39,844 nt of DNA from Hydrogenophilus sp. GTDB lineage: Bacteria > Pseudomonadota > Gammaproteobacteria > Burkholderiales > Thiobacillaceae. Both the position numbers and the translations under genes were made by a program. The notes under the pieces are model-generated. The model was given only the letters and a program-made list of their open reading frames with translations. It ran no database searches and was not told the DNA's origin. Positions 5,716-39,332 of the stretch are shown piece by piece. Position 1 is the stretch's first letter, and each line of letters starts with the position of its first letter. Location of the stretch: the NCBI GenBank assembly GCA_020692235.1, contig JAIMKU010000009.1:9184-49027 (forward strand), in the 5' to 3' direction.

Positions 5716-5790
5716 TGTGTCAGGATAGATGTCGCCTCCTGTGTGAGGAGTGAGTAGACAAATCGGGGGCATGATGCTGGTGGAGATGAT

Positions 5791-5855
5791 CTGGTTGGGG
5801 GAGGGGAACAGGCATGAGCCCGTAGGGCAACTGGATGTTCGCCTCTCCCAACCAG
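5791..5855 (+). repeat. Imperfect inverted repeat in the IS leader
   Basis: The arms 5791-5810 and 5836-5855 (CTGGTTGGG...GAACA against TGTTC...CCCAACCAG) pair at 18 of 20 positions around a 25-nt loop, ending about 30 nt before the orfA start. The transcript would fold into a long stem. Such leader structures in IS elements can block translation from read-through transcripts, but that role is inferred here. Confidence 0.6.
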
Positions 5856-5886
5856 ACACCGCCGGCCCGACTGGAATGGAATACAG

Positions 5887-7442: not shown

Positions 7443-7467
7443 CTAATGCGACAACTTACTTGACACC

Positions 7468-7768
7468 TACCGCTCTCCACCGCTTCGCGTTGCGCGAAGT
7501 AATATTGGAATGGCGAGAGCGTGCCGTCGGCCTGCTCGATGAGGTGCTCGGTATCGAACCACCAATGCAGCAGTGACTTCGACGTTGCCGAAGCACTCTG
7601 ATATCCAGCATCCCGCCAAGCCTTGACCTCTTCGCGTATCTTGGCCACCAAAGGTGGCAACAGTTTTTCATACGCGACCGCTCGCATTTCCTCGTCTACG
7701 GGGAACCAGCGCTGCTCGGGTTCGAGCGTGGCGTACGGCGAAGAGGGGAAATCCGGGTGCAGAGACAT
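7468..7768 (-). pseudogene. res': N-terminal stump of a type III-like restriction helicase
   Basis: The first 90 or so codons (from MSLHPDFPSSPYATLEPE) correspond to the start of the intact restriction gene at 27324: the PSSPYA.L / PQSPHAILD start, the KSLLHWWF / RSLLNWWF box and FQYYFAQREA are shared. Homology stops at AVESG, at the right end of the IS. The helicase motifs and nuclease domain are missing, so it is nonfunctional. The ATG is only 4 nt after the aroA stop, with no clear ribosome site. On this strand res' lies upstream of mod', the reverse of the order in the intact operon. Confidence 0.85.
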
Positions 7769-22580: not shown

Positions 22581-23771
22581 ATGACCATGGATATTTACCC
22601 GCTGTTCCGGCCACTGATTTTTCAACTCGACCCGGAAACCGCCCACAACCTGACCATCGACGCACTGCGCCGAGCCCCGACTTGCCTGCTCAAGGCCATG
22701 CTGCCCACGATCCAGGACGACCCGCGCCAGGTTATGGGCCTGACCTTCCCCAACCCGGTCGGGCTGGCCGCTGGCCTGGACAAGAACGGCGAGTGTCTGG
22801 ACGCCTGGGCCGCCATGGGCTTCGGCTTTATCGAGGTCGGCACGGTCACGCCGCGGCCGCAGCTAGGTAACCCCAAACCACGGATGTTCCGGCTGACCGA
22901 GGTAAACGGCATCATCAACCGCATGGGCTTCAACAATGACGGTATCGACGCCCTGCTGGAAAACGTGGCCCGGTCGAATTTCCAAGGTGTGCTCGGCATC
23001 AACATCGGCAAAAACTTCGATACCCCGATCGAAAACGCCGCCGACGACTACCTGATCGGCCTGCGCAAGGCGTACCAACGAGCCAGCTATGTCACGATCA
23101 ACATCTCCTCGCCCAACACCAGGGGTCTGCGCAGCTTGCAATATGGCGACGAACTTGATGCCCTATTGACGGTACTCAAGGCCGAGCAGACACGACTGGC
23201 TGACCAACACGGCAAATACACCCCGTTTGCGGTCAAGGTGGCCCCGGACCTGGGAGACAAACAGATCGCCGATATGGCCGCCCTGTTCCGCAAACACCGG
23301 GTCGACGCGGTTATCGCCACCAATACCTCGCTCTCCCGCGTCGGGGTCGATCACCTGCCCTACGGCACCGAGATTGGCGGCCTATCCGGGGCGCCCGTCA
23401 AAAGGGCCTCGGACCAGGTACTGGCGGCACTCGCCTTCGCCGGTGCGCTGAAAGACGAGATTCCGCTCATCGGTGTAGGCGGCATACTTGGCGGCGATGC
23501 CGCCGTCGACAAACTGCGCCTGGGCGCCAGTCTGATACAGGTCTACAGCGGCCTGATCTATCGCGGTCCGACACTGATTTCAGAATGTGCAGCGGCCTGC
23601 CGGGGGCTCGGCCACGCCCCGCAGTTGCGGCAGTTCAACCGCTCAACCAGCGCCCCCCCCAGACCGGGTCGGACAAATAACAATTTGAAACATTTGGTAG
23701 CACTCCCGAAATCCACCGAAACCACCTACTGGCTAGCATGGAATCGTCACAACACAGGAGAACTACCATGA
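22581..23771 (+). CDS. pyrD: Dihydroorotate dehydrogenase (quinone), with long C-terminal tail
   Basis: This is the class 2, membrane-associated enzyme of pyrimidine synthesis that passes electrons to ubiquinone. The N-terminal [17 protein letters not shown] is the quinone-tunnel helix. [14 protein letters not shown], the catalytic Ser region [18 protein letters not shown] (174 onwards) and [13 protein letters not shown] are present. The homologous part ends near [10 protein letters not shown] (about residue 345); the reading frame then runs about 50 more codons of unrelated composition. The tail begins after a C8 tract (23653-23660), and both other frames stop within about 15 codons of it. 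Its TGA overlaps the next gene's ATG. AAGGG lies 6 nt before the ATG at 22581. Confidence 0.92.
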
Positions 23772-24042
23772 AATCGAAATATGCCCTGCCGCTACTCGTT
23801 GCCGCGCTGACCGCCGCGGGTTCGACCACCGCCTCGGCGGACGAAGTATAGAACGTATTGATCGGCACTGGCGTCGGCGCAGCGCTTGGCCACGCCATCG
23901 GCGGCCATAATGGCGCGGTGGCCGGCGGCGTAGTTGGCGCCATTGCCGGCGTCGCCGCATCGCGGCCACGGACAGTCTATGAAAGCCGGACAGTCTATGA
24001 AAGCCAACCGGTTTATTACCAAAGCCAGCCGACAACCTATAC
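23768..24042 (+). pseudogene. 5' part of a secreted glycine-zipper gene, interrupted by the RM island
   Basis: It starts with AGGAG 8 nt before the ATG and a signal peptide ([18 protein letters not shown]...ASADEV). A TAG at 23849 interrupts it; the frame then continues as a glycine zipper (IGTGVGAALGHAIGG, GAVAGGVVGAIAGVA) and a Tyr-rich segment with an 18-nt direct repeat coding TVYESR-like units (23966-24001). The frame is lost at 24043, where the restriction-modification island begins; the rest of the gene is at 30053-30275. The intact protein would be about 165 residues, resembling small envelope proteins with a glycine-zipper 2TM motif. It is broken twice: by the nonsense codon and by the insertion. 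Confidence 0.85.
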
Positions 24043-24101
24043 CTACAAAGTTTGCGCTGGTATCAACTTCGAGAACAAAATTGTCCTCTTGATTGCCATA
24101 C

Positions 24102-24121
24102 GAATTGCTGCTGAGCAATTC
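24102..24121. repeat. Perfect inverted repeat upstream of mod
   Basis: GAATTGCT (24102-24109) and AGCAATTC (24114-24121) flank GCTG. It lies about 110 bp before the mod start inside the island leader. It may be an operator or hairpin; there is no T-run for a terminator. Confidence 0.5.
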
Positions 24122-24145
24122 ATGGTAAGGAAAATTAACGACGAC

Positions 24146-24163
24146 ACGCGGCTAAAACCGCGT
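24146..24163. repeat. Second inverted repeat upstream of mod
   Basis: ACGCGG (24146-24151) and CCGCGT (24158-24163) flank CTAAAA, about 65 bp before the mod ATG and next to a possible -35-like TTTACA (24173-24178). A regulatory site for the RM operon is possible. No controller (C-protein) gene is seen. Confidence 0.4.
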
Positions 24164-24228
24164 ATTCAATTGTTTACAATGTCTCTCGATTTGTAACCAG
24201 GTAGAACACCGGGAAAAAGAGGCTTTTT

Positions 24229-26454
24229 ATGTCACGACTGACCGAACAGGAACAGCAGGAGATCATCCGCTTTATTGAGGCGGACAAGCCGCTGCCGGAC
24301 AAATACCGCTTTCTGCTGTTCGAGGACAAGCGCGAGGTCGAACTGGTCTGGAATGGAAAGACAAGCGAGGTCTGCAATATTGTCCTGCCCTTCCAAGTCA
24401 TCGAGCAGGTGGACGAGCCACGGGCGGAGAAGCCAGAGGACACTTCATCACAAGGATTGCTTTTTGACGAACGTGGCCGCCAGCTCAAGGGTTGGACCAA
24501 TAAGCTCATCTGGGGCGACAACAAGCTCATCCTTTCCAGCCTGAAAAACGGCCCGTTGCGCGAGGAGATTGAAAAGCAGGGCGGGCTGAAATTGATCTAC
24601 ATTGACCCGCCCTTCGACGTAGGCGCGGATTTTTCGATGGACATCGAGATTGGTGGCGACACTTTCACCAAGAAGCCCAACATCCTGGAAGAAATCGCCT
24701 ACCGCGATACCTGGGGAAAGGGCGCAGATTCTTTCATCGCTATGATCTACGAGCGGTTGGCGCTGATGCGGGATTTGCTGGCGGAGGACGGCAGCATCTA
24801 TGTGCATTGTGATTGGCGACTCAGCGGATATATGCGTCTAGTGCTGGATGAGGTATTTGGGAAAGGTGGAGAAACTGAAAAGGCAGGATTTCGTAATGAA
24901 ATTATTTGGTGCTATCGCGGCGGGGGCGTGCCCAAAAATGATTTCGCTCCAAAGCATGACACCATTTTCAGATACAGCAAATCAACCCAATTTACTTTTA
25001 ACGTTGATGATGTCCGTATCCCATACTCTGACGACGTAATGAATTCTGATCCAAGCCGCTACGATAAATCGTATAGAGACAATAAGGTGTATGAAGGTTA
25101 CAAACCAAACGAGAAAGGCAAGCACCCCGAAGACTGGTGGACAATTCAACCGATCATGCCATCAGATAAAACAGAGAGAGTTGGCTACCCTACGCAGAAA
25201 CCAGTCGAACTGATACAGAGGATCATTGATGCAAGCACAAATCCAGACGATATTGTTATGGATGTTTTTTGTGGCTCAGGCACAACCCTTGCGGTTGCAC
25301 AAGGACTAAGAGCTCGGAGAGTTAAGCTGCAATCAGGCAAAGAGAATATTGAATATTACTTTACAGATCAGCGCAAATGGATAGGTGCTGATCTAAGCAA
25401 GTTCGCAATCCACACCACGCGCAAGCGTCTGATCGGCGTGCAGCGCGCGCTCAAGGCCGATGGCAAGGACTACCGCGCCTTCGAAATCCTCAACCTCGGC
25501 AAATACGAGCGCCAGCACTACATCGGCGTCAACCCCAACCTGCGCGAGGCGGAACAACAGAAGCAGTTGGCGGAGAAGGAAACGGCCTTTATTGACCTGA
25601 TCCTGCGCGCCTATCGCGCCGAAAAGACCGATGGCTTCAATACCTTCCACGGTAAGAAGGCCGGGCGGCTGGTGGCAGTGGGGCCGGTGAACCTTCCGGT
25701 AACGCGGCTCTTCGTGGAAGAGGTTATTTTGGAATGCCGCAAGAAGCATATCACCAAAGTGGACATCCTTGGCTTCGAGTTTGAGATGGGGCTGTTCCCC
25801 AACGTGCTGGACGAAGCCCGTGCCAAAGGCATAGACATCGCACCCAAATACATTCCGGCCGAGGTGTTCGATAAGCGGGCGGTGGAGAAAAACCAGGTGG
25901 TGTTTCACGATGTCTCCTTCATCGAGGTCAAGCCGCACGTCAAGAAGAACAGCGTGGCGGTAGAGCTTACCGACTTTTCAGTTTTTTATTCGCAGGATTC
26001 TATCGCCAATGCGGAGGCCACGCTCAAGGACAAAGCCAGCCGGATCGTCGTAGAAAAGGGGCAGATCGTGAAGGTGAGCAAGGACAAGGACGGCGTCGTC
26101 ACCCGCGAAACACTTACCAAGAACTGGACCGACTGGATCGACTACTGGGCGGTGGACTTCAACTTTGAGAGCAAGCGGGAGATTATTCGGGTGCCGGTAA
26201 ATCCCTCCCAGCCCCCCTTTGACAAAGGGGGGAGCGAAGCGGGGGGATTTGAAGAGGTCTGGACCGGGGATTACATCTTTGAGAATGAGTGGCAATCCTT
26301 CCGCACCAAAAAGGATCGTTCGCTGGAACTGAAAAGCGTCTTTCATGAATGCCCGCCGGGCCGGCGCAAGCTGGCTGTCAAGGTGGTGGATATCTTCGGC
26401 ACCGACACGATGACGATCGTGGACGTGAGCGTGGGAAAGGGAGTAGGAAGGTAA
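24229..26454 (+). CDS. Type III-like DNA adenine methyltransferase (Mod), beta class
   Basis: This protein of 741 residues has motif IV (IDPPFD, 125-130) ahead of motif I (VFCGSGTT, 346-353), the order of the beta class used by type III Mod proteins. The part between carries YERLALMRDLLAEDGSIYVH and should include target recognition. A long C-terminal region (about 400-741) with RLFVEEVILECRKK and [15 protein letters not shown] is shared with mod' at 4108-5715. AAGAGG precedes the ATG by 7 nt. The segment 24840-25390 is clearly AT-rich compared with the flanks, and a 52-bp dispersed repeat is translated at 26199-26250. It probably makes N6-methyladenine to protect host DNA from the Res protein; the recognition sequence is unknown. 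Confidence 0.9.
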   Translation: MSRLTEQEQQEIIRFIEADKPLPDKYRFLLFEDKREVELVWNGKTSEVCNIVLPFQVIEQVDEPRAEKPEDTSSQGLLFDERGRQLKGWTNKLIWGDNKLILSSLKNGPLREEIEKQGGLKLIYIDPPFDVGADFSMDIEIGGDTFTKKPNILEEIAYRDTWGKGADSFIAMIYERLALMRDLLAEDGSIYVHCDWRLSGYMRLVLDEVFGKGGETEKAGFRNEIIWCYRGGGVPKNDFAPKHDTIFRYSKSTQFTFNVDDVRIPYSDDVMNSDPSRYDKSYRDNKVYEGYKPNEKGKHPEDWWTIQPIMPSDKTERVGYPTQKPVELIQRIIDASTNPDDIVMDVFCGSGTTLAVAQGLRARRVKLQSGKENIEYYFTDQRKWIGADLSKFAIHTTRKRLIGVQRALKADGKDYRAFEILNLGKYERQHYIGVNPNLREAEQQKQLAEKETAFIDLILRAYRAEKTDGFNTFHGKKAGRLVAVGPVNLPVTRLFVEEVILECRKKHITKVDILGFEFEMGLFPNVLDEARAKGIDIAPKYIPAEVFDKRAVEKNQVVFHDVSFIEVKPHVKKNSVAVELTDFSVFYSQDSIANAEATLKDKASRIVVEKGQIVKVSKDKDGVVTRETLTKNWTDWIDYWAVDFNFESKREIIRVPVNPSQPPFDKGGSEAGGFEEVWTGDYIFENEWQSFRTKKDRSLELKSVFHECPPGRRKLAVKVVDIFGTDTMTIVDVSVGKGVGR
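26199..26250. repeat. 52-bp palindromic dispersed repeat translated within mod
   Basis: The ends AAATCCCTCC and GGGGGGATTT pair with one mismatch, and the centre CCCCCCTTTG A CAAAGGGGGG is a perfect inverted repeat. It resembles dispersed repeats whose translations (PPFDKGG) are familiar in many bacterial genomes. It encodes NPSQPPFDKGGSEAGGF in frame within a linker that is variable between mod and mod'. Confidence 0.75.
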
Positions 26455-26456
26455 TA

Positions 26457-27317
26457 ATGGGGAAAGAAATAACGAAGGAAACAGGCGGGCATGCGTCGCC
26501 TTTCGAGCGGATCCGGAAGGTCAATGAGGCGGGCAATGAGTATTGGGAGAGTCGCGACCTGGCCGGGGTGCTGGACTATACCCAATACCGCAATTTTGAG
26601 ACCGTAATCGAGAAGGCGAAGCTGGCGTGTTTCAACAGCGGGCATCATATTGAGGATCATTTTGCTGACGTCAGCAAAATGATCGAGATCGGGAAAGGTG
26701 GCAGGCGCGAGATCAACGTCACTTTGCTTTCACGCTACGCCTGTTACCTCGTCATTCAGAACGCCGATCCCAAAAAGGGGATCGTGGCGCATGGTCAAAC
26801 CTACTTTGCCATCCAGACGCGGCGGCAGGAATTGGCTGACGAAAATATCGAAGAAAATCAGCGGCTGTTATTGCGTGCAGAAATTCGCCGCCATAACGTT
26901 CAGTTGGCCGACGCTGCCAAGGGTGCCGGCGTTATCGAACCCATTGACTACGCTATCTTTCAAAATCACGGATATATGGGGCTTTATGGCGGGTTGAAAC
27001 AGGAGGACATTCATAGGCGGAAAGGATTGAAAAAGAGCCAGAAGATTCTGGATCACATGGGCAGCACGGAACTGGCGGCGAACTTGTTTCGCGCGACCCA
27101 GGCAGAGGAGAAATTGCGCCGGGATGAGGTGAAGGAAAAAGACGCAGCGAACCGGACGCATCGTGAAGTCGGCGCGAAGGTGCGGCAAACCATCCGGGAA
27201 TTGGGCGGCACGATGCCCGAAGAATTGCCGGTAGTCGAAAGCATCAAGAAGATCAAGACCCAACAGAGAAAGCGACTCGGCACTACTGAGACGCCCACAA
27301 AAAAGAAAGGCAAATAA
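26457..27317 (+). CDS. dinD: DNA-damage-inducible protein D (DinD)
   Basis: This 286-residue protein closely matches E. coli DinD. It has a BRO-N-like N-terminus (PFERIRKVNEAGNEYWESRD), LSRYACYLVIQNADPKKGIV, GQTYFAIQTRRQELAD, FQNHGYMGLYGGLKQEDIH and the long conserved KSQKILDHMGSTELAANLFR. In E. coli, DinD is LexA-controlled and inhibits RecA filament-dependent strand exchange. Here it lies between mod and res: its ATG is 2 nt after the mod stop, with AGGAAGG inside the mod 3' end, and res begins 6 nt after its stop. All three genes are therefore likely on one transcript. No LexA-type box was identified. A 30-bp perfect palindrome lies in its coding region (26655-26684). The tail is Lys-rich. 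Confidence 0.93.
   Translation: MGKEITKETGGHASPFERIRKVNEAGNEYWESRDLAGVLDYTQYRNFETVIEKAKLACFNSGHHIEDHFADVSKMIEIGKGGRREINVTLLSRYACYLVIQNADPKKGIVAHGQTYFAIQTRRQELADENIEENQRLLLRAEIRRHNVQLADAAKGAGVIEPIDYAIFQNHGYMGLYGGLKQEDIHRRKGLKKSQKILDHMGSTELAANLFRATQAEEKLRRDEVKEKDAANRTHREVGAKVRQTIRELGGTMPEELPVVESIKKIKTQQRKRLGTTETPTKKKGK
26655..26684. repeat. 30-bp perfect palindrome within dinD
   Basis: The half site GATCATTTTGCTGAC is followed at once by its exact reverse complement with no spacer, for 15 matched pairs. It codes for part of DHFADVSKMIE, a moderately conserved stretch. It could be a protein-binding site or a cruciform, or partly a coincidence of coding constraint. Confidence 0.9.
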
Positions 27318-27323
27318 CCGGAT

Positions 27324-30011
27324 ATGGCCCTGCATAAAGACTTTCCGCAATCCCCGCACGCGATTCTCGACCCGGGCATCCGCTGGTTTCCCGCCGATGA
27401 GGCGCTCAGGGAAAACAGCATGGATAAACTCATGCCGCCGCTGGTGCCGGTGCTGCGCCGCAAAGTGAAGGAGTTCCGGGACGGGGGGTACGTAGGAGCA
27501 ACAGACACCAGCCGCAGCCTGCTCAACTGGTGGTTTAACACGCCACACCTGCTGCCCCAGGCCGACGGAACCATGGCCGAGTTTCAGTATTACTTCGCAC
27601 AACGTGAGGCGCTGGAAACCATCATCTACCTGTACGACGTGGTGGGGGTAAAGGACAAGTTTGACATGATGCGCTTCGACGGTTCCGGCCTGGTCTCCGC
27701 CGGGATGTTTGACGAGACCTGGCGGCGGTTCGTGGTGAAGATGGCGACGGGCACAGGCAAGACCAAGGTGATGAGCCTGGCGCTGGCGTGGAGTTTTTAT
27801 CACAAGCTGTACGAGCCGGAATCTGAACTGGCACGCAACTTCTTGGTGATCACCCCCAACATCATCGTGCTGGACCGGATTTACCGGGATTTCCAGGGCT
27901 TGCGTATCTTCTTTGAAGACCCTGTCATTCCAGACAACGGCGTGGACGGGCGCAACTGGCGCGACGATTTCCAGCTTACCCTGCATAAACAGGATGAAGT
28001 ACGCATTACCCGACCCACCGGCAATATCTTTCTGACCAACATCCACCGCGTCTATGCCGGCGACGATATCCCCGCATCGCCCGACGACGAGAACACGATG
28101 AACTATTTCTTGGGCAAGCGGCCCAGCGGCGCGACCACCGACTCCAAGGTGGACTTGGGCATGATTGTGCGGGACATCGACGAGCTTGTGGTGCTGAACG
28201 ACGAGGCGCACCATATTCACGACCCGCGCATGGCATGGTTCAAATCCATCGAGGACATCCACAACCGACTGAAGCAAAAAGGATCCGCGCTCTCTCTGCA
28301 AGTGGACGTGACCGCCACGCCCAAGCACAACAACGGCGCGATCTTTGTGCAGACCGTGGCCGATTACCCGCTGGTGGAGGCCATCTCGCAGAATGTCGTC
28401 AAGCATCCCGTCCTGCCCGACGCGGCCAGCCGGGCAAAGTTGACCGAGCGCCAGAGCGCGAAGTTCACCGAAAAATACGCCGACTATATTCATTTGGGCG
28501 TGATCGAATGGCGCAAGGCCTATACCGAACACGCAAAGATGGGCAAGAAGGCGATTTTGTTCGTGATGACCGACGACACGCGCAACTGCGATGACGTAGC
28601 TGAATATCTGGAGGGGAATTACCCGGACTTGAAAGACGCCGTGCTGGTGATTCACACCAAGAACAACGGAGAGATATCCGAATCAACGTCGGGCAAGAGC
28701 AAAGAAGAGTTGGATAAGCTGCGCGAACGAGCCAATGCGATTGACGGGATGGACAGCCCCTACAAGGCCATCATCTCGGTGATGGTCCTTAAAGAGGGCT
28801 GGGATGTGCGCAACGTAACCACAATTGTGGGGCTGCGCGCCTATTCCGCGAAAAGCAACATTCTGCCCGAACAAACCCTGGGGCGCGGCTTGCGCAAGAT
28901 GTATCCCGGCGGCCTAGAAGAATATGTCAGCGTGGTTGGCACGAATGCCTTTATGGATTTTGTGGAATCCATCCAGGCGGAAGGCGTGGTGTTGGAGCGC
29001 AAGCCGATGGGCGAAGGCACTGGGCCGAAAACGCCGCTGGTCGTCGAAGTTGACAACGAGAACGAGAAGAAAGACATCGACGCGCTGGATATTGAAATCC
29101 CGGTGCTGACCCCCCGCGTCTTCCGGGAATACAAGAACCTTGGCGCGCTGGACGTGGGCGCGCTGGGGCATCAACGCGTGGCCTATCTACAGTTCAGTGA
29201 AGAAGAACAGCGGGAGATCGTCTTCAAGGACATCACCACCGGCGAGGTGACGCATACCACGATTCTCGACACAGCCGGCGTTGCCGACTACCGCAGCGTG
29301 ATAGGCTACTTTGCGCAGACCATCATGAAGGACTTGAGGCTGGTCGGCGGCTATGACGTGCTCTATGGCAAGGTCAAGGCGTTTATTCAGGACCGGTTGT
29401 TTGACCGGCAGGTAGACCTGGAAGACCCCAACACCCTGCGCAACCTGTCGGAACCGGCCGCCACCAAGACACTGATTGAGACCTTCAAGAAGGCGATCAA
29501 CGCCCTGACCGTACAGGACAAAGGAGATGCCGAAATCCGCGACACCATCAAGCTGCGGCAAACGCGCCCCTTTGTGGCAAAGGATCAGAGCTACCTTGTC
29601 CCGAAGAAGAGTGTCTTTAACCGTATTATCGGGGACAGCCGGTTTGAACTGCTGTTCGCCCGCTTCCTGGAAGACTGCGACGATGTGGTTTCATATGCTA
29701 AGAACTATATGGCAGTGCATTTCAAGCTGGACTACGTGAATGCGGACGGCGACATTTCTAACTACTACCCGGATTTTCTGGTCAAGCTGTCTGAAAAACG
29801 AATTGTTGTTGTCGAAACCAAGGGGCAGGAAGATTTTGACGTGCCACTCAAAATGCAGCGGCTGCGCCAATGGTGCGAGGACATCAACCGGGTCCAGTCA
29901 GATGTGATGTATGATTTTGTTTATGTAGACGAAGAGAGCTTTGAGAAGTTTAAACCCACATCATTTCGGAAATTGGCTGATGGTTTCAGGGAATACAAAG
30001 AAAAGCTATAA
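27324..30011 (+). CDS. Type III-like restriction enzyme, Res subunit (helicase-nuclease)
   Basis: This 895-residue superfamily 2 helicase is fused to an endonuclease. Walker A is MATGTGKTKVM (140-150) and motif II is DEAHH (293-297). Later helicase motifs include VMVLKEGWDVRNVTTIVGLR and EQTLGRGLRKM. The C-terminal PD-(D/E)xK nuclease shows YYPDF with Asp817 and VETKGQ with Glu831 and Lys833. In type III systems Res needs Mod, ATP and two inverted unmethylated sites to cut. All catalytic motifs look intact, so the system may be active. It is the third gene after mod and dinD, and only a weak ribosome site is visible. A truncated relative is at 7468-7768. Confidence 0.92.
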   Translation: MALHKDFPQSPHAILDPGIRWFPADEALRENSMDKLMPPLVPVLRRKVKEFRDGGYVGATDTSRSLLNWWFNTPHLLPQADGTMAEFQYYFAQREALETIIYLYDVVGVKDKFDMMRFDGSGLVSAGMFDETWRRFVVKMATGTGKTKVMSLALAWSFYHKLYEPESELARNFLVITPNIIVLDRIYRDFQGLRIFFEDPVIPDNGVDGRNWRDDFQLTLHKQDEVRITRPTGNIFLTNIHRVYAGDDIPASPDDENTMNYFLGKRPSGATTDSKVDLGMIVRDIDELVVLNDEAHHIHDPRMAWFKSIEDIHNRLKQKGSALSLQVDVTATPKHNNGAIFVQTVADYPLVEAISQNVVKHPVLPDAASRAKLTERQSAKFTEKYADYIHLGVIEWRKAYTEHAKMGKKAILFVMTDDTRNCDDVAEYLEGNYPDLKDAVLVIHTKNNGEISESTSGKSKEELDKLRERANAIDGMDSPYKAIISVMVLKEGWDVRNVTTIVGLRAYSAKSNILPEQTLGRGLRKMYPGGLEEYVSVVGTNAFMDFVESIQAEGVVLERKPMGEGTGPKTPLVVEVDNENEKKDIDALDIEIPVLTPRVFREYKNLGALDVGALGHQRVAYLQFSEEEQREIVFKDITTGEVTHTTILDTAGVADYRSVIGYFAQTIMKDLRLVGGYDVLYGKVKAFIQDRLFDRQVDLEDPNTLRNLSEPAATKTLIETFKKAINALTVQDKGDAEIRDTIKLRQTRPFVAKDQSYLVPKKSVFNRIIGDSRFELLFARFLEDCDDVVSYAKNYMAVHFKLDYVNADGDISNYYPDFLVKLSEKRIVVVETKGQEDFDVPLKMQRLRQWCEDINRVQSDVMYDFVYVDEESFEKFKPTSFRKLADGFREYKEKL

Positions 30012-30052
30012 GAAGGAAAAGGCCACTGATCTGTTTTCCCATTAATCTATAC

Positions 30053-30275
30053 GCTCTATGAGCCGGCCGTGGTTTATCAAGCACCGCCGCAGGTAATCTA
30101 CGCCGCCCCCGTGTGGCATCAAGACCAGCGTTGGGACCGGCGTTGGGACCGGCGTCATTACCGCAACGGCGATCGTTTCTATGGTCATCGCCACGACCAT
30201 GACCGCTTTGCCGATCACCGCCCGGATTTTGAAGAACACCGCCACGAAGAACACCGCCATGGTGAGTGGCGGTAA
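30053..30275 (+). pseudogene. 3' part of the interrupted glycine-zipper gene
   Basis: It continues the frame broken at 24042. After the junction the codons read CTC TAT GAG (LYEPAVVYQAPPQVIYAAPVW), then a tandem 12-nt repeat (WDRRWDRR) and a His/Asp/Arg-rich tail (HRHDHDRF, EEHRHEEHRHGEWR), ending in TAA. A GTG at 30069 could open a short frame, but there is no ribosome site and the signal peptide is on the other side of the island. Confidence 0.85.
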
Positions 30276-30641: not shown

Positions 30642-33600
30642 TTGAAACCAACGCGGAAGTCGGGCAAGGCTTTCAATGAAGAATCGCCACTGCGGGCTGA
30701 ATTGTTCAGTACCGATCAGATGGCGAAGCACGGGGTCCGACTCGCGTCCACCCACCGCCTGATGCCGGAGCGCGCCCCGGACCAGTTGCTGGCGCGACTG
30801 GCGGCGAACGAGGGCGTTCTGATCGAGACCTGCGACCAGCTCACGGCCGCGGTCGGGGCAAAGCAACGCATCACGCCGGCCGGGGAATGGCTGCTCGACA
30901 ACTTCTATCTGGTCGAGGAGCAGATACGTACCGCCCGGCGGCATCTGCCCAAGGGCTACAGCCGGGAACTGCCCAGCCTGTCCGAAGGCGCTTCGGCCAG
31001 TTTGCCGCGCGTCTACGACATTGCCCTGGAAACCATCGCCCACGGCGACGGACGGGTGGACCCGGACAGCCTGAGCCGCATCGTCGCGGCTTACCAGACG
31101 GTCACGCCACTGCGGCTGGGCGAGCTGTGGGCCATCCCTATCATGCTGCGTCTGGCGCTGATCGAGAATCTGCGCCGCGTCGCTGTGCGCATCGCCGCCG
31201 GCAGGCGGGATCGGGATATAGCCGTCGTCTGGGCGGATACATTGGTGGAGATCGCCCACCGGGATGCGAAAAACCTGATCCTGGTCATCGCCGACATGGC
31301 GCGCTCGAATCCGCCCATGACCGCCCCGTTCGTGTCGGAATTCGCGCGCCGCCTGCAGGGGCAGGGTCCCGCCCTGGCCCTGCCGTTGACCTGGATGGAA
31401 CAGCAACTGGCCGAGACGGGGCTGAGCATCGAACAGTCGGTGCGCGCGGGCAACCAGCAGCAGGCCGCCGATCAGGTCTCCATCAGCAACAGCATCGGCA
31501 GCCTGCGCTTCCTCGGCACCATGGACTGGCGCGAGTCCGTCGAGGCCATGAGCCTGGTCGAAGGGATATTGCGCGGCGACCCGAGGCAGGTCTACGCCGG
31601 GATGGATTTCGCCAGCCGCGACCGCTACCGCCACGCCGTCGAGGCGATCGCGAAGGCGAGCCGTCTCACCGAAGACGCGGTCGCCGTCCGCGCCATCGAG
31701 CTGGCGCGGGGAGCGGCCCGGATCGGCGAGGCCGATGGAACGGCCCACGTGGGCTACTACCTGATCGGGCCGGGCCGGCCGGCGCTGGAAAGCGCCACCC
31801 GGGCGAGCCTCGCCCCGGCCGCGCGGCTTCGGCGCCGGGCCAGCCGATCACCCCTGTTCCTGTATGTGGGCGCCATCACCTTGCTGACTCTGCTGATCGC
31901 GGCGGGCCTGTCGCTCCAGGCCTGGGCCGACGGCGTCGCGGATTGGGTGCTCGTCGTGACGGGGCTGCTCGCGTTGCTGGCCGGCGGTCAGCTCGCCACC
32001 GCGCTGGTGAACTGGCTGGCCACCCTGCTGGTGTCGCCGCATCCCCTGCCGCGCATGGACTACTCCGCAGGCATCCCGGCAGAATCGCGCGCCATGGTGG
32101 TAGTGCCTACCATGCTCTCCAGCCCCCACAACATCGACAGCCTGGCGGAGGCTCTGGAAGTCCGCTTCCTGGCCAATCGCGACGAAAACCTGCGCTTCGC
32201 CCTGTTGACCGACTTGCGCGATGCGTCCGAGGAAACCCTACCGGAGGACTCCCCCCTGCTGGAACAGGCCCGGGAGCGGATCGAGGCCCTGAATACCCGC
32301 TACGGATCGGGTCGCAACCACGCGAACAATGACATCTTCTTCCTGCTGCACCGCCCGCGCCGCTGGAATCCCCATGACCGCATCTGGATGGGCTACGAGC
32401 GCAAGCGCGGCAAGCTGGCCGACCTGAACACCCTGCTGCTCGAAGGCAAGCGGGACGGTTTCTCCCTGGTGGTGGGCGACACTGCGGCCCTGGCCGGCGT
32501 GAAATACGTGATCATCCTGGACACGGACACCCAGTTGCCGCGCGATGCCGCGCGCCAGTTCGTCGGCGCCATGGCGCACCCGCTCAACCGGCCGGTCCAC
32601 GATGCGGCCCTGGGCAGGGTGCGGGCGGGCTACGGCATCCTGCAACCGCGCGTGAGTGTGAGCCTGCCAGGCTCCAGCCAGTCCCGCTATGCCCGCCTGA
32701 ACGGCGGCGAGCCGGGCATCGATCCGTACACCCGCGCCGTTTCGGACGTCTACCAGGACGTGTTCCAGGAAGGCTCGTTCATCGGCAAGGGCATCTACGA
32801 CGTCCGTGCCTTCGAGCAGGCTCTGAAAGGGCGTTTCCCGGAAAACCGCATCCTCAGCCACGACCTGCTGGAAGGCTGCTACGCCCGCTCCGGGCTGTTG
32901 AGCGACGTGCAGTTGTACGAGGAATACCCGGCCCGCTATGGCGCCGACGTCAATCGCCGCTATCGCTGGACCCGGGGCGACTGGCAGCTCGCGGCCTGGC
33001 TGCTACCCCGGGTGCCCGGCCCGGACGGGCGGCGACGGAAGAATACCCTCTCCCTGCTGTCGCGCTGGAAGCTGGCCGACAACCTGCGCCGCAGCCTGGT
33101 GCCGGCAGCCTTGACGCTGCTCCTGGTACTGGGCTGGACGGTGTTTGCATCGGCTGGATTCTGGACCACGGCGGTGCTCGGCGTCCTCCTGCTTCCGCCA
33201 CTGCTGTCCACCTTGCTGGATCTGATCCGCAAGCCGACGGACATGCGGCCGGGCCAGCACCTTGCAACTGTCGTGCAGGCCGCCGGCCAGCGCTTCGTCC
33301 AGGCCGGCTTCGCCCTGGCGACCCTGCCCCACGAGGCGTTCTATAGCCTGGATGCGATCCTGCGCACCCTCGGTCGCTTGGCTGTCACCCACAAACGGCT
33401 GCTGGAATGGAATCCCTCCAGCGACGATCTGCAAAACCGGGGTGATCTGGTCGCCTCGTTCCGCACCATGGCGTTCGCGCCCGTCCTCGCCGTCGGCACG
33501 GGCATCGCCCTGGCAACGCTGAATCCGGCCGCGTTGCTGGTAGCCGGCCCCATCCTGCTGCTGTGGCTGGCCTCTCCCGTCATCGCCTGGTGGATCAGCC

Positions 33601-36600
33601 TACCCCTGGCCCGCCGCGAGGTCCGGCTGACGGCCGATCAGACCCGTTTCCTCGGCCGCATCGCACGCAAGACCTGGGCCTTCTTCGAGACCTTAGTCGG
33701 CCCCGACGACCATTGGCTGCCGCCGGACAACTACCAGGAATACCGGGCCGCCACCCTGGCCCACCGCACTTCGCCCACCAACATGGGCCTGGCGCTGCTG
33801 GCGAACCTGTCCGCCCACGATTTCGGCTACATCCCAGCCGGGCAACTGATCGAGCGCAGCGCCGGCACCCTGGAGACGATGGCGGGTCTGGAACGCCACC
33901 GCGGCCATTTCTACAACTGGTACGACACCCAGTCCCTGCGCCCGCTGCATCCGATGTATATCTCCACGGCGGACAGCGGCAACCTGGCGGGACACCTGCT
34001 GACCTTGCGTCCGGGCCTGATGGCCCTGCTCAATCTCCCCATACTGGAGCCCCGCTGCCTGGCAGGACTACGCGACACGCTGGAGATTCTGGAAGAGCTT
34101 GAGGGCGAACGGGCGCCGGCCACCCTGGCCCAATACCGGAGAGACCTGAAAGCGGCATTCGACACCCCACCAGCCACGCTTTCGGCCGCGCGGGTTTTGC
34201 TGGACCGGCTGGCGCAATCCGCCGGGGCCATCGCCGCCCACTTCGGCCAGGAGCCCGAGAGCCAGACGGCCTGGTGGGCACGGGCGCTGGCCCGGCAAGG
34301 CCAGGCGGTTCGCGATGAACTGGCCTATCTCGCGCCCTGGGCCGAGCTGCCGGACGCGCCGGACGGATTCGGCGGGTTTGCCGAAATCGACGCGATTCCG
34401 ACTTTGCGTGCCCTGGCGGGGCTTGCTCTGGCGGAGCCTGTCGACTTCGCAAGCCGGTCCGGGGCGGCCACGTCGCACGCCTCGCCCGAGCAAGCCGCGT
34501 GGATCGACGATCTGCGCCGGCACATCGCCGAAGGCAGCGAACGCGCCCAGGCCCGCATCGCCAGCATCCAGCGCCTGGTCCTGCTGGCCGGTGAACTGGC
34601 TAACATGGAATACGGTTTCCTCTACGACAAGGCGGCACGCCTGCTCTCCATCGGCTACAACGTGGACGATCGGCGCCGCGACACCAGCTACTACGACCTG
34701 CTGGCCTCGGAAGCGCGTCTCTCCGTGTTCGTCGCCATCGCCCAGGGACAGTTGCCCCAGGAAAGCTGGTTCGCCCTCGGCCGCCTGCTCACCAGCGCCG
34801 GCGGCGAGCCGATCCTGCTGTCCTGGAGCGGCTCCATGTTCGAGTACCTGATGCCGCAACTGGTGATGCCCAATTACGAGCACACCTTGCTGGACCAGAC
34901 CCTGCGGGCGGCGGTGGCGCGGCAGATCGAGTACGGCCAGCAGCTCGACCTGCCCTGGGGCATGTCGGAATCCGGCTACAACACGATGGACTTGCATTTC
35001 AACTACCAGTACCGGGCCTTCGGCGTGCCTGGCCTGGGGCTGAAGCGCGGGCTCGGCGAGGACCGGGTGGTGGCGCCCTACGCCTCGGTGATGGCGCTAA
35101 TGGTGGCGCCGGAGGCGGCCTGCCAGAACCTGCAACGCCTTTCCGCCCTCGGCGCGGAAGGGCAGTACGGCTTCTTTGAGGCCATCGACTACACCCCGGC
35201 CCGGCAACGGCGTGGCGAAACCCATGCCCTGGTGCGCTCCTACATGGCCCACCACCAGGGCATGAACCTGCTGGCCCTGGCCTGGCTGCTTCTGGATCAG
35301 CCGATGCAGAAGCGCTTCACCGCCGATCCCCTGTTGCAGGCCACCCTGCTGTTGCTGCAGGAACGGATCCCCAGGGCATCGGAGTTCTATACCCACATCG
35401 CCGAACTCAGCGGTCTCCAGGTCGGCATGGCCAGCCCGGAAATGCCGATCCGGGTGTTGAACGACCCCGATACGCCAATCCCGGAAGTGCAGTTGCTCTC
35501 CAACGGACGCTATCACGTCATGGTCACCCATGCGGGCGGCGGCTACAGCCGCTGGAACGATTTGGCCGTGACTCGCTGGCGCGAGGACGGCGTGCGCGAT
35601 CCCTGGGGCACGTTCACCTATCTGCGCGACGTGGAAAGCGGCGCGACCTGGTCCACGGCGCACCAACCCATGCTGCGGCGCGCGAAACGCTACGAAGCAA
35701 TCTTCTCGGAAGGGCGCGCGGAATTCCGTCGCAGCGATCGGGGTGGCGATAAGGGTGAAGATTTTGACTTCGATACCCACACCGACATCGTCGTCTCGCC
35801 GGAAGACGACATCGAACTGCGCCGGGTGCGCATCACCAACCGCGCCGACAAGCCCCGCACCATCGAGGTCACCAGCTACGCGGAAGTGGTGCTGGCCACG
35901 CCCGCCGCCGATGCCATGCATCCGGCCTTCAGCAATCTCTTCGTCCAGACCGAGATCGTCGCGCTGCTCCAGGCCATCCTCTGCACCCGCCGGCCCCGCT
36001 CGCTCGAAGAGCACGCGCCCTGGATGTTCCACCTGATGTCGGTGCACGATGCCGAAGTCGAATCCCTCAGCTACGAAACCGACCGGGCCCGCTTCCTCGG
36101 CCGCGGGCGCGGCCCCGGCGCGCCCCACGCCATGGAAGCGGCGGGCGCCCTGTCCGGCGGCCAGGGTTCGGTGCTTGATCCGGTGGCCGCCATCCGCTGC
36201 CGCATCACCCTGGCGCCGGAACAATCCGCCAGCGTGGACCTGGTGTACGGCATCGGCGACAGCCGCGCGGCGGTTCTGGGCCTGGTGGAGAAATACCGGG
36301 ATCGCTGCCTGGCCGACCGGGTCTTCGAACTGGCCTGGACCCACGCCCAAGTGCTGCTGCGCCAGATCAACGCCAACGAGGCCGACGCCCAGCTCTACGG
36401 ACGGCTGGCCAAATCCATCCTTTACGCCCATGCCGGGCTGCGTGCCGACAGCAGCGTGCTGATGCAGAACCGGCGCGGCCAGTCCAGCCTCTGGGGCTAC
36501 GCCATTTCCGGAGATCTGCCCATCGTCCTGGTGCGCATCGCCGACCTGGCCAACATCGAACTGGTGCGCCAGATCATCCAGGCCCATGCCTACTGGCGTC

Positions 36601-39332
36601 TGAAGGGCCTGGTGGTGGACCTGGTGATCTGGAACGAGGACCGCGCCGGCTATCGCCAGGCCTTGCAGGACCAGATACTAGGATTGGTGGCGGTGGGCCT
36701 GGAAACCCAGGTCATCGACCGGCCCGGCGGCATCTTCATCCGCTCGGCGGAGCAGATTTCCGAGGAAGACCGCACCCTGTTCCAGACCGTTGCCAGGGTG
36801 ATCCTCAGCGACAGCCGGGGCACCCTGGCGGAACAGCTCGACCGGCCGGGCCCACCCGTGGTCCGCGCGCCGTTGTTGCAAATCAAGACCCCACGCCCGG
36901 AACCGCCCGCCGCCTTCGAACTGCCGCAACGAGACCTGATCCTGCCCAGCGGCCTGGGTGGTTTCACCCCGGATGGGCGCGAGTACGTCATCACCACCAC
37001 GCCGGAGCAACTCACCCCGGCGCCCTGGGTCAACGTGCTGGCCAATCCCCGCTTCGGCAGCGTGATTTCGGAAAGCGGCCAGGCCTATACCTGGGGCGAG
37101 AACGCCCACGAATTCCGCCTCACCCCCTGGGACAACGACCCGGTGTCCGATTCCAGCGGAGAAGCCTTCTACCTGCGCGACGAGGAGACCGGCCAGTTCT
37201 GGTCGCCCACCCCACTGCCCCGGCGCGGTGCCACGCCCTACGTCAGTCGCCACGGCTTCGGCTACAGCGTGTTCGAACACATGGAGAGCGGCATCCGCTC
37301 GGAACTGTGGGTCTATGTGGCCACCGACGCGGCGGTGAAGTTCTCAGTGCTCAAGGTGCGCAACCAGTCCGGGCGGTCCCGGCGGCTGTCCGCCACCGGC
37401 TATGTGGAATGGGTGCTGGGGGACCTGGGACCGAAATCGGCCATGCACGTCACCACCGAAGTTGATTCCTACAGTGGCGCGCTCTACGCCCGCAACCCCT
37501 ACAACACCGAGTTCCCCGACCGGGTCGCCTTCTTCGATGTGGACGACGCCAACCGCACCCTGACCTGCGACCGGGCCGAATTCATCGGCCGCAACGGCAG
37601 CCTGGCCAACCCGGCGGCCCTTGGCCGCACCCACCTGTCCGGCAGGTGGGGCAGCGGGCTGGCCCCCTGCGCCGCACTCCAGGTGGGCTTCAACCTGGAC
37701 GACGGCCAGGAGCGCGAGATCGTCTTCCGGCTAGGCCTGGGCGGCACACCGGGTGGAGAGGACGCCAACCGTCTGGTTCACCGCTTCCGGGGTGGCAATG
37801 CCGCGCGGCGGGCGCTGGAAGAAGTCTGGAATTTCTGGAACCACAGCCTCGGCGCGGTGCAGGTGGAGACGCCCGACGAATCCCTCAACGTGCTCACCAA
37901 CGGCTGGCTGCTGTATCAAACCATGGCCTGCCGCATGTGGGCGCGCAGCAGCTATTACCAGTCCGGCGGCGCCTTCGGCTTCCGCGACCAGTTGCAGGAC
38001 GCCATGGCCCTGGTCCACGCCGAGCCCGGCCTGCTGCGCGCGCAACTCCTGCTGTGCGCCAGTCGCCAGTTCCGCGAAGGCGATGTCCAGCACTGGTGGC
38101 ACCCGCCCGCCGGGCGTGGCGTGCGCACCCATTGTTCCGACGATTACCTGTGGCTGGCCCTGGCCACCAGCCGCTATGTGCTCAGCAGCGGCGACACCGG
38201 CGTACTGGAGGAAGCCGTGCCCTTCCTGGAAGGCCGCCCCCTCAATCCCGACGACGAGTCCTACTACGACCTGCCCGGCCGTTCCGAGGGCACGGAAAGC
38301 CTGTATCAACACTGCGTGCGCGCCATCCGGCACGGCATGCGCTTCGGCGAACACGGCCTGCCGCTGATGGGCTCCGGCGACTGGAACGACGGCATGAACA
38401 GGGTCGGCATCGGGGGTTTGGGGGAAAGCGTCTGGCTGGGCTTCTTCCTGCATGAAGTGCTGCGCCAGTTCGGCACCCTGGCTCGCCGCCACGACGACCC
38501 CGCCTTCGCCGAATTCTGCGCTTCAGAAGGCGACCGTCTGCGCGACCACATCGAACGGAACGCCTGGGACGGTGCCTGGTACCGCCGCGCCTGGTTCGAC
38601 GACGGCACGCCGCTGGGTTCCGCCACCAACGCCGAATGCCAGATCGATTCCATCTCGCAAAGCTGGTCGGTGCTGTCCGGGGCGGGAGATACCGAGCGTT
38701 CCCACCAGGCCATGCAGGCGCTCGACGAGCGCCTGGTTCGGCGCGAAGTGGGCCTTGTACAGTTGCTCGACCCACCCTTCGACCAGACCGACCTGGACCC
38801 AGGCTACATCAAGGGTTACGTGCCCGGCGTACGGGAAAACGGCGGCCAGTACACCCAAGCCGCCATCTGGGCCGCCATGGCCTTCGCCGCCCAGGGCGAC
38901 AGCCGCCGCGCCTGGGAGATCACCACCATGATCAACCCAGCCAACCACGCCAAGTCGAAGGAAGCCATCGCCACCTACAAGGTGGAACCCTACGTCATGG
39001 CCGCGGACGTCTACGCCGTCGCCCCCCACATCGGACGCGGCGGCTGGACCTGGTACACCGGCTCCGCCGGGTGGATGTACCGGCTCATCGTCGAATCCCT
39101 CCTGGGCCTGCGCCTGGAAGTGGACAAGCTCCACGTCGCGCCCTGCCTGCCCGCCCACTGGCCAGGGTACAAGGTCCACTACCGCTACCGGGAGACGGTG
39201 TATCACATCGCCGTCGTGCAACTCGATGCGGCGGGCCTCAGCCTTGATGGGCTTGAGCTGGACGGTATGTCCATTCCCTTGGTGGACGACCATCGGGAAC
39301 ACACCGTCGAGGTTAGGGTGCTAGCGCGGTGA
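30642..39332 (+). CDS. Cyclic beta-1,2-glucan synthase (NdvB/ChvB type)
   Basis: This giant inner-membrane enzyme of about 2,896 residues builds cyclic beta-1,2-glucans from UDP-glucose, using itself as primer. An N-terminal conserved part (PLRAELFSTDQM; ITPAGEWLLDNFYLVEEQ) leads into membrane helices near 403-465, then a GT84 glycosyltransferase with the DTD motif at 627-629 and RRYRWTRGDW (W776). More helices lie near 820-870 and 945-985. A middle glucoamylase-like region, two carbohydrate-binding or super-sandwich regions and a C-terminal GH94 phosphorylase-like domain follow, with the GDWNDGMN box at 2579-2586 that sets chain length in relatives. The TTG start has GGGAG 6 nt upstream; a start at the ATG 30720 would cut conserved sequence. 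The C-terminus is complete. Relatives are best known in alphaproteobacteria. Confidence 0.93.
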   Translation: MKPTRKSGKAFNEESPLRAELFSTDQMAKHGVRLASTHRLMPERAPDQLLARLAANEGVLIETCDQLTAAVGAKQRITPAGEWLLDNFYLVEEQIRTARRHLPKGYSRELPSLSEGASASLPRVYDIALETIAHGDGRVDPDSLSRIVAAYQTVTPLRLGELWAIPIMLRLALIENLRRVAVRIAAGRRDRDIAVVWADTLVEIAHRDAKNLILVIADMARSNPPMTAPFVSEFARRLQGQGPALALPLTWMEQQLAETGLSIEQSVRAGNQQQAADQVSISNSIGSLRFLGTMDWRESVEAMSLVEGILRGDPRQVYAGMDFASRDRYRHAVEAIAKASRLTEDAVAVRAIELARGAARIGEADGTAHVGYYLIGPGRPALESATRASLAPAARLRRRASRSPLFLYVGAITLLTLLIAAGLSLQAWADGVADWVLVVTGLLALLAGGQLATALVNWLATLLVSPHPLPRMDYSAGIPAESRAMVVVPTMLSSPHNIDSLAEALEVRFLANRDENLRFALLTDLRDASEETLPEDSPLLEQARERIEALNTRYGSGRNHANNDIFFLLHRPRRWNPHDRIWMGYERKRGKLADLNTLLLEGKRDGFSLVVGDTAALAGVKYVIILDTDTQLPRDAARQFVGAMAHPLNRPVHDAALGRVRAGYGILQPRVSVSLPGSSQSRYARLNGGEPGIDPYTRAVSDVYQDVFQEGSFIGKGIYDVRAFEQALKGRFPENRILSHDLLEGCYARSGLLSDVQLYEEYPARYGADVNRRYRWTRGDWQLAAWLLPRVPGPDGRRRKNTLSLLSRWKLADNLRRSLVPAALTLLLVLGWTVFASAGFWTTAVLGVLLLPPLLSTLLDLIRKPTDMRPGQHLATVVQAAGQRFVQAGFALATLPHEAFYSLDAILRTLGRLAVTHKRLLEWNPSSDDLQNRGDLVASFRTMAFAPVLAVGTGIALATLNPAALLVAGPILLLWLASPVIAWWISLPLARREVRLTADQTRFLGRIARKTWAFFETLVGPDDHWLPPDNYQEYRAATLAHRTSPTNMGLALLANLSAHDFGYIPAGQLIERSAGTLETMAGLERHRGHFYNWYDTQSLRPLHPMYISTADSGNLAGHLLTLRPGLMALLNLPILEPRCLAGLRDTLEILEELEGERAPATLAQYRRDLKAAFDTPPATLSAARVLLDRLAQSAGAIAAHFGQEPESQTAWWARALARQGQAVRDELAYLAPWAELPDAPDGFGGFAEIDAIPTLRALAGLALAEPVDFASRSGAATSHASPEQAAWIDDLRRHIAEGSERAQARIASIQRLVLLAGELANMEYGFLYDKAARLLSIGYNVDDRRRDTSYYDLLASEARLSVFVAIAQGQLPQESWFALGRLLTSAGGEPILLSWSGSMFEYLMPQLVMPNYEHTLLDQTLRAAVARQIEYGQQLDLPWGMSESGYNTMDLHFNYQYRAFGVPGLGLKRGLGEDRVVAPYASVMALMVAPEAACQNLQRLSALGAEGQYGFFEAIDYTPARQRRGETHALVRSYMAHHQGMNLLALAWLLLDQPMQKRFTADPLLQATLLLLQERIPRASEFYTHIAELSGLQVGMASPEMPIRVLNDPDTPIPEVQLLSNGRYHVMVTHAGGGYSRWNDLAVTRWREDGVRDPWGTFTYLRDVESGATWSTAHQPMLRRAKRYEAIFSEGRAEFRRSDRGGDKGEDFDFDTHTDIVVSPEDDIELRRVRITNRADKPRTIEVTSYAEVVLATPAADAMHPAFSNLFVQTEIVALLQAILCTRRPRSLEEHAPWMFHLMSVHDAEVESLSYETDRARFLGRGRGPGAPHAMEAAGALSGGQGSVLDPVAAIRCRITLAPEQSASVDLVYGIGDSRAAVLGLVEKYRDRCLADRVFELAWTHAQVLLRQINANEADAQLYGRLAKSILYAHAGLRADSSVLMQNRRGQSSLWGYAISGDLPIVLVRIADLANIELVRQIIQAHAYWRLKGLVVDLVIWNEDRAGYRQALQDQILGLVAVGLETQVIDRPGGIFIRSAEQISEEDRTLFQTVARVILSDSRGTLAEQLDRPGPPVVRAPLLQIKTPRPEPPAAFELPQRDLILPSGLGGFTPDGREYVITTTPEQLTPAPWVNVLANPRFGSVISESGQAYTWGENAHEFRLTPWDNDPVSDSSGEAFYLRDEETGQFWSPTPLPRRGATPYVSRHGFGYSVFEHMESGIRSELWVYVATDAAVKFSVLKVRNQSGRSRRLSATGYVEWVLGDLGPKSAMHVTTEVDSYSGALYARNPYNTEFPDRVAFFDVDDANRTLTCDRAEFIGRNGSLANPAALGRTHLSGRWGSGLAPCAALQVGFNLDDGQEREIVFRLGLGGTPGGEDANRLVHRFRGGNAARRALEEVWNFWNHSLGAVQVETPDESLNVLTNGWLLYQTMACRMWARSSYYQSGGAFGFRDQLQDAMALVHAEPGLLRAQLLLCASRQFREGDVQHWWHPPAGRGVRTHCSDDYLWLALATSRYVLSSGDTGVLEEAVPFLEGRPLNPDDESYYDLPGRSEGTESLYQHCVRAIRHGMRFGEHGLPLMGSGDWNDGMNRVGIGGLGESVWLGFFLHEVLRQFGTLARRHDDPAFAEFCASEGDRLRDHIERNAWDGAWYRRAWFDDGTPLGSATNAECQIDSISQSWSVLSGAGDTERSHQAMQALDERLVRREVGLVQLLDPPFDQTDLDPGYIKGYVPGVRENGGQYTQAAIWAAMAFAAQGDSRRAWEITTMINPANHAKSKEAIATYKVEPYVMAADVYAVAPHIGRGGWTWYTGSAGWMYRLIVESLLGLRLEVDKLHVAPCLPAHWPGYKVHYRYRETVYHIAVVQLDAAGLSLDGLELDGMSIPLVDDHREHTVEVRVLAR

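What the first reader, a model, noticed from the sequence alone, without database searches (positions are those of the whole stretch)
24037..30275. RM island precisely splits a glycine-zipper gene; removing 6,010 bp restores the frame
The 5' part (23768-24042) and 3' part (30053-30275) share Tyr-rich composition. Joining them at the CTATAC copies gives TAT ACG CTC TAT GAG without a shift. This fixes the exact borders of a mobile RM cassette that has no recombinase of its own.
Basis: seen in the sequence. Interest (0 to 1): 0.72.

Follow-up and report, generated by a model that had tools for sequence, protein, structure and literature searches.

The report
Restriction operon splitting a glycine-zipper gene
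A 6-kb bacterial DNA-defence operon with no recombinase of its own has landed inside a small glycine-zipper gene; close relatives carry that gene whole, and some distant relatives of the operon end in integron-type recombination sites, which suggests how such operons may travel.

Summary
The 5' part (23768-24046) and 3' part (30057-30275) belong to one glycine-zipper gene. Two relatives carry it uninterrupted: G004, after pyrD, and G006. About 6,010 bp with mod-dinD-res sits inside it in the window. Predicted length and frame match G006; G004's empty site is 6 bp shorter, so "exact borders" stay uncertain (24043-30052 or 24047-30056). The CTATAC pair lies in the register set by G006 (chance 0.001-0.003), so a short target duplication is likely, not proven. 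No terminal inverted repeats and no Ku were found. The left end carries a scrap of a foreign ATPase gene.

The operon is Type III-like with intact motifs. Relatives sit in MAGs of many phyla, with divergent recognition domains and a variable middle gene. In 7 of 80 relatives an attC-like site follows res; the model built from these ends also finds cassette arrays beside integron integrases in one relative's genome. The window copy has the matching leader but no attC. Best reading: an RM unit of integron-cassette ancestry, pasted in by illegitimate recombination. A new variant of a known kind.

The parts
22581..23771 (+). pyrD (dihydroorotate dehydrogenase), left neighbour; ORF as listed
   Evidence: PF01180, E 1.9e-74; 91% aa identity to G004
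23768..24046 (+). 5' part of the split glycine-zipper gene
   Evidence: 91% aa identity to G004 residues 1-92; Pfam glycine-zipper models ring in the intact G004 copy (best E 3e-6) but below their curated cut-offs
23849..23851 (+). in-frame TAG, codon 28 of the split gene
   Evidence: sense codon in both intact relatives
24037..24042 (+). left CTATAC copy
24059..24154 (+). remnant of an AAA/SMC-type ATPase gene carried in on the left end (about 32 codons, matching codons ~620-648 of proteins of ~720 aa)
   Evidence: (72% identity over 32 aa, E 8e-6)
24172..24228 (+). leader of the RM unit, starting at a GTT; related to the leaders of L058, L096, L057; sequence to its left is not
24229..26454 (+). 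mod: DNA methyltransferase, Type III-like; DPPF and FCGSG motifs present; residues ~201-400 (recognition region) divergent among relatives
26457..27317 (+). dinD-like gene (Bro-N), in the variable middle slot
   Evidence: NF008573, above cut-off
27324..30011 (+). res: ResIII helicase with a C-terminal PD...E-T-K motif
30012..30046 (+). tail after res; begins ATAAG-AAGG, like an attC start (ATAAC-AAGG), but no attC found
30047..30052 (+). right CTATAC copy
30057..30275 (+). 3' part of the split glycine-zipper gene
   Evidence: 74% aa identity to G004 residues 90-163

Best explanation
A Type III-like RM operon (mod-dinD-res) was inserted, as part of a ~6.0-kb foreign fragment, into a glycine-zipper gene downstream of pyrD. 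Shown: one gene is split, two relatives have it uninterrupted, none of the three genes is a recombinase, no terminal inverted repeats were found, and the left end is a scrap of another gene. Shown for relatives: the RM family occurs in genomes of many phyla with a divergent recognition region and a variable middle gene, and in a minority an attC-type site follows res. Inferred: the ancestor of this unit moved as an outsized integron gene cassette, excised and inserted in trans by an integron integrase. The window's copy was later picked up with neighbouring donor DNA and joined into the chromosome by illegitimate (short-homology) recombination, leaving a 6-bp direct repeat. Lacking an attC, it should now be fixed in place. 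Inferred function: the cell methylates its own sites and Res cuts incoming unmethylated DNA; DinD is a passenger or a damage-response partner.
For: Empty sites in G004 and G006. In-register repeat, P 0.001-0.003. Foreign ATPase scrap at the left end. No terminal inverted repeats (p 0.49). 110 relatives of Res found, the best 80 listed, 65-91% identical, in MAGs of many phyla, yet in the family only 10 of 117 genomes (own included) match at E<=1e-20, and of the six same-genus relatives only G004 does, with 112 residues at a contig end. attC-like hairpin after res in 7 of 80 loci (these seven trained the model); 6 of 10 pairs with a compensatory change. In L058's genome the model's three other hits lie on the two contigs with integron integrases, in the orientation and spacing of cassette arrays. 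Six relatives share a left border: beyond the pattern used to find them the right side is similar (mean z 3.2, 5 of 15 pairs above 3), the left is not (mean z -0.1, 0 of 15). The window leader is nearest to those of L058, L096 and L057 among 56; L058 and L096 have clear attC ends, L057 a weak one. Catalytic motifs present.
Against: The two empty sites disagree by 6 bp, and neither equals the predicted junction. No Ku in the genome, so classical end joining is unlikely. The window has no attC and no integron integrase above cut-off, so no integron step can be shown for this copy. Integrases above cut-off are in 6 of 11 genomes with the signature and 6 of 22 without, Fisher p 0.15. Of 8 fetched integrase regions from 6 genomes, the model rang in 2, both from L058's genome. 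In the other genomes that were searched with both queries, no model hit shares a contig with an integrase above cut-off. The test for an attC just left of mod was weak (combined p 0.07-0.09), and a generic hairpin score showed no enrichment. Leaders of L062 and L074 also resemble the window's (z 6.3, 4.8) without an attC hit.
Confidence: 0.58

Rival explanations
1. Transposition in trans: a resident transposase mobilised the fragment (one-ended or composite event) and left a 6-10 bp target duplication.
For: In-register direct repeat. An IS with transposase-HTH and rve domains lies in the same window at 5887-7442. IS-driven RM movement with duplications of 8-10 bp (IS1) or 4 bp (IS5) was shown in E. 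coli (PMC3031569, passages).
Against: No inverted repeats at the ends. The identified neighbours (pyrD, the split gene) are not IS genes, though no dedicated IS search was made there. The left end is a gene scrap.
Confidence: 0.16
2. Insertion without any target duplication; the CTATAC repeat is chance.
For: Any shared 6-mer between such flanks is expected in 13% of cases. G004's site needs none, and G006 reads ATATAC rather than CTATAC.
Against: The match is in the register set by G006's length (P 0.001-0.003), and window 24040-24046 resembles G006 (6 of 7 bases) beyond the point where G004 breaks off.
Confidence: 0.2
3. IntI-mediated insertion of the cassette at a secondary (non-attI) site, followed by loss of the attC.
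For: Integron signature in the relatives with the nearest leaders.
Against: About 125 bp of foreign DNA, partly ATPase gene, lies between host gene and leader. Neither junction is a G/TT crossover. No attC and no IntI above cut-off here.
Confidence: 0.04
4. Assembly chimera or two separate genes.
For: The genome is a 63-contig assembly of unknown origin.
Against: Both flanks are the two halves of one gene in the right order, and G004 joins them directly.
Confidence: 0.02

Closest known systems
RM systems inserted into genomes with target duplication (Kobayashi group; Nobusato 2000 and Furuta 2010, as cited in PMC3031569 and PMC3874152)
   Same: An RM unit sits alone in a place that is uninterrupted in a related genome, with a short direct repeat and no recombinase among its genes.
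   Different: Units with short duplications are said to have imperfect inverted repeats (PMC3874152, passage); none found here. The insert carries a foreign gene scrap. Furuta 2010 is not held and was not read.
Type III RM (EcoP15I Mod/Res)
   Same: Mod and Res both match EcoP15I chains by sequence (4zcf); helicase plus PD...E-K motif.
   Different: Distant (Mod E 7.8e-13, Res E 0.0026); a third gene between mod and res.
Integron gene cassettes carrying RM genes
   Same: Some relatives end in attC-type sites and share a sharp cassette-like start; RM genes on integrons are reported (PMC4176335, PMC3874152, passages).
   Different: Units of about 6 kb with two or three genes, far above the ~0.7 kb average implied by 219 cassettes in ~150 kb (PMC3856429, passage); the window copy has no attC.

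Membership tests
Type III RM system | Mod with adenine-methyltransferase motifs | tested here: met
   PF01555 E 9e-41; PADLOC MTase_III E 1.1e-111; DPPF in 59 of 59 relatives covering it. Nine of 70 relatives' Mod matches hold a stop.
Type III RM system | Res with SF2 helicase and PD-(D/E)XK nuclease | tested here: met
   PF04851; best PADLOC hit REase_III E 1.3e-19; Walker A G-K-T 75 of 75, D-E-A-H 79 of 79, P-D...E-K 79 of 79 relatives. NCBIfam's nearest model is BPTD_3080, below cut-off.
Type III RM system | cuts only with paired, inversely oriented sites; hemimethylation (recalled) | not testable with these tools
   needs biochemistry
RM insertion with target duplication | empty site in a relative | tested here: met
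   G004, G006
RM insertion with target duplication | duplicated target sequence | tested here: inconclusive
   CTATAC in the register set by G006, but G004 is 6 bp shorter and G006 reads ATATAC
RM insertion with target duplication | terminal inverted repeats (short-duplication class) | tested here: not met
   p 0.49
integron gene cassette (window copy) | attC at the 3' end | tested here: not met
   no hit to model R1 at E<=1
integron gene cassette (relatives) | attC at the 3' end | tested here: met
   7 of 80 loci, the model's own training set; the same model finds arrays beside intI in one genome
integron gene cassette (relatives) | lies in an array next to intI and is excised by IntI | not tested
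   no RM locus and intI were seen on one contig of these draft genomes

The most novel reading that the evidence does not exclude
A whole Type III-like restriction operon of 6-7 kb, with exchangeable recognition domain and an exchangeable middle gene (DinD, KilA-N, Schlafen-like ATPase, Fic, YhcG nuclease or none), travels across phyla as an outsized integron gene cassette. The window holds an escaped copy that lost its attC and became fixed inside a host gene.
Probability: 0.5. Interest if true: 0.6.

Novelty: new variant of a known kind. Interest (0 to 1): 0.42.

Why it matters
It gives a clean before-and-after picture of how a recombinase-less RM operon enters a genome. It also gives a testable answer to how such operons move between distant phyla: in part as integron cassettes, moved by an integrase supplied elsewhere. 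If so, integrons can shuttle complete multi-gene defence systems and not only small single genes.

Tried and rejected
Self-mobile element with its own ends: rejected. The three genes are methyltransferase, Bro-N/DinD and helicase-nuclease (other mechanical ORFs inside were not searched), there are no inverted repeats, and the left end is inside a foreign gene.

Phage carriage: no Res match at E<=1e-20 in 50,697 phage records. Plasmids: 11 of 72,556 records match at E<=1e-30, two of them closely (82-84%), on rhizobial plasmids. In the DNA printed after their res I saw no attC by eye; the model was not run on them.

Classical NHEJ: no Ku found (Bacillus subtilis rang among the controls).

Results against the integron reading: generic hairpin score, upstream 4 of 56 and downstream 1 of 78 loci beyond the 5% control level; fixed-position test combined p 0.07-0.09; integrase 6 of 11 against 6 of 22, p 0.15; integrase regions of five other genomes without a hit. 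The left-border loci were picked by an 11-base pattern taken from them: 7 of 56 hits, against 111 of 5,000 random segments. One of the seven, L107, was dropped from the six as it fits less well.

One search's 'down' query was translated in a wrong frame; its identities are not used (one search is).

Literature: the listings showed no paper on a Type III-like RM operon as an integron cassette. That covers only the held open-licence library; passages were read in PMC3031569, PMC4176335, PMC3874152, PMC3856429 and PMC5371416 only.

Full report
WHAT IS THERE. The window gene at 23768 begins as a short protein with a signal-like N-terminus (by eye) and a glycine zipper (Pfam glycine-zipper models at E 3e-6 to 3e-3 in the intact relative, below their curated cut-offs), runs to about 24046, and resumes at 30057-30275. 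Between lie mod (24229-26454), a dinD-like gene (26457-27317) and res (27324-30011). Of 117 genomes of the family, 20 match the gene at E<=1e-6. Two are close orthologs outside the window: G004, 163 aa in one frame, right after a pyrD 91% identical to the window's, and G006, 70% identical over residues 1-163. The other relatives' copies are 32-48% identical and were not used for the junction. In G004 the blastn alignment passes directly from window base 24039 to window base 30056. The gene is therefore one gene, split by the RM island.

THE JUNCTION. Three sites can be compared. G004 reads ACAACCTA-CTATGAG. G006 reads CGCACATATACTTACTATGAG. The window's left side reads ACAACCTATACCTAC and then foreign DNA; its right side reads CTATACGCTC and then TATGAG. 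Where G004 breaks off, the window's left side goes on TACCTAC, close to G006's TACTTAC, so a G006-like length of the ancestor is the simplest assumption. With it, the second CTATAC lies exactly in register, and either 24043-30052 or 24047-30056 (both 6,010 bp) can be removed. The latter gives the same T-Y-Y-E peptide as G006. The in-register 6-base run has a chance of 0.0012-0.0034, against 13% for any shared 6-mer. A target duplication is thus probable, not proven; its length (6, or 10 with three changes) is open. Under a G004-like ancestor the repeat would mean nothing.

THE GENE WAS BROKEN TWICE. Codon 28 of the joined frame is TAG (23849-23851); both relatives have a sense codon. Which break came first cannot be told. 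No other stop or frameshift is seen in the 498 bp, so the decay looks recent (inference).

THE ENDS OF THE INSERT. No terminal inverted repeats were found. Bases 24059-24154 encode 32 residues that are 72% identical to an AAA/SMC-type ATPase (best of 19 matching plasmid records, E 8e-6), from inside its C-terminal region. Of 250 genomes of the order, four besides the own genome hold a weaker match, in frames of 724-741 aa. The insert is therefore a piece of a donor locus whose left end is a gene scrap, and not a neatly bounded element. By homology the RM unit itself begins at about 24172. From there the 57-bp leader is related to those of L058, L096 and L057 (z 9.8, 9.4, 7.4; the best of 56 loci), then L062 (6.3) and L074 (4.8), while the sequence to its left is not.

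THE RM FAMILY. A genome-collection scan found 110 relatives of Res and kept 80, at 65-91% identity of the best segment, under record titles that name Deltaproteobacteria, Nitrospira, Chloroflexi, Acidobacteria, Planctomycetes, Omnitrophota, a Methanothrix MAG and others. Most are draft MAGs, so single placements may be wrong. In the window's own family 10 of 117 genomes, the own one included, match Res at E<=1e-20. Mean identity of Mod per 40-residue bin is 0.77-0.94 in 11 of 14 bins outside residues 201-400 and 0.31-0.40 in four of the five bins inside, the mark of exchanged recognition domains. Between mod and res, 19 of 69 loci have no room for a gene (gap of 32 bp or less) and two have the reverse order. 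Clusters of middle genes are KilA-N (12 loci), Schlafen-like ATPase (7) and DinD (6), named from one tested member each or from the window's DinD; single cases include Fic, YhcG nuclease and an ImmA/IrrE-type protein. Catalytic motifs of Mod and Res are present in the window. EcoP15I is the only solved Res relative found, and it is distant.

INTEGRON LINK. After the res stop, seven loci (L058, L059, L071, L076, L082, L096, L125) carry a hairpin with attC-like boxes, first noticed by eye; six of its ten pairs have a compensatory change. A covariance model of these seven (R1) rings in them, in one place of L132 that is not beside res, and weakly in L057, in a search of 80 loci and the window. 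In whole genomes of nine such loci it gave 30 hits. In L058's genome the three hits other than its own all fall on the two contigs that carry integron integrases above cut-off. Closer search shows further sites spaced as in cassette arrays, on the strand and side expected for an integron. That is the strongest evidence that the hairpins are attC sites. It rests on one genome: integrase regions of five other genomes gave no hit. Six loci (L053, L057, L058, L059, L069, L114) share a left border at GTTATRTTTTC (L059: GGTATATTTTC), in five of them 65-67 bp before mod. Beyond the pattern that selected them, the 40 bases to the right are similar (mean z 3.2; 5 of 15 pairs above 3) and the 40 to the left are not (mean z -0.1; 0 of 15). 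Against it: the upstream attC tests were weak, integrase presence does not differ significantly from genomes without the signature (6 of 11 against 6 of 22, p 0.15), and no RM locus was seen on one contig with intI. In the window there is neither an attC nor an integron integrase above cut-off; only the first bases after res resemble an attC start.

MECHANISM. Most likely: the operon's lineage moved as a large integron cassette. In this lineage a donor fragment holding the unit and a scrap of an ATPase gene was taken up and joined into the glycine-zipper gene by short-homology recombination. No Ku was found, so an alternative end-joining or replication-linked route is inferred. IS-assisted transfer is a live rival: IS-driven RM movement, and rare crossing-over at 1-3 bp of identity, have been shown in E. 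coli (PMC3031569, passages).

KNOWN OR NEW. RM units inserted with short or long target duplications are known (PMC3874152, passages; Furuta 2010 not held). RM genes on integrons are also reported (PMC4176335, passages). The split gene is a further case of the first. The size, modular build and attC ends of the relatives would be a new variant of the second. The listings of my searches showed no such description in the held library.

Noticed in passing
window 4111-7768: A second, dead copy of the same RM family between ORFs that look like aroA (7773-9068, -) and cmk (3408-4082, -; names by recall): Res start (99 aa, 60%) at 7472-7768 (-), Mod part (50% over a 550-column alignment) at 4111-5688 (-), with an IS (transposase HTH plus rve) at 5887-7442 between them. 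G004 has the same Res start in the same place at a contig end, so it probably predates the split of the two species.
   Followed up: partly
window 24059-24154; L144-L146: The ATPase scrap points to an AAA/SMC-type ATPase family on rhizobial, sphingomonad and other plasmids; one member is annotated 'phage infection protein'.
   Followed up: partly
L113, L120: In these two Poribacteria loci res comes before mod, unlike the other 67 of 69 loci in which both ends could be placed.
   Followed up: no
L169 (Aminobacter plasmid pANY103c), L170 (Sinorhizobium medicae pSMED02): Close relatives of Res (82-84%) on large rhizobial plasmids; in L169 near mobilisation genes.
   Followed up: no
window 30642-39332: Single ORF of 2,896 codons to the right of the split gene; looks like a cyclic beta-glucan synthase (recalled, not searched).
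   Followed up: no
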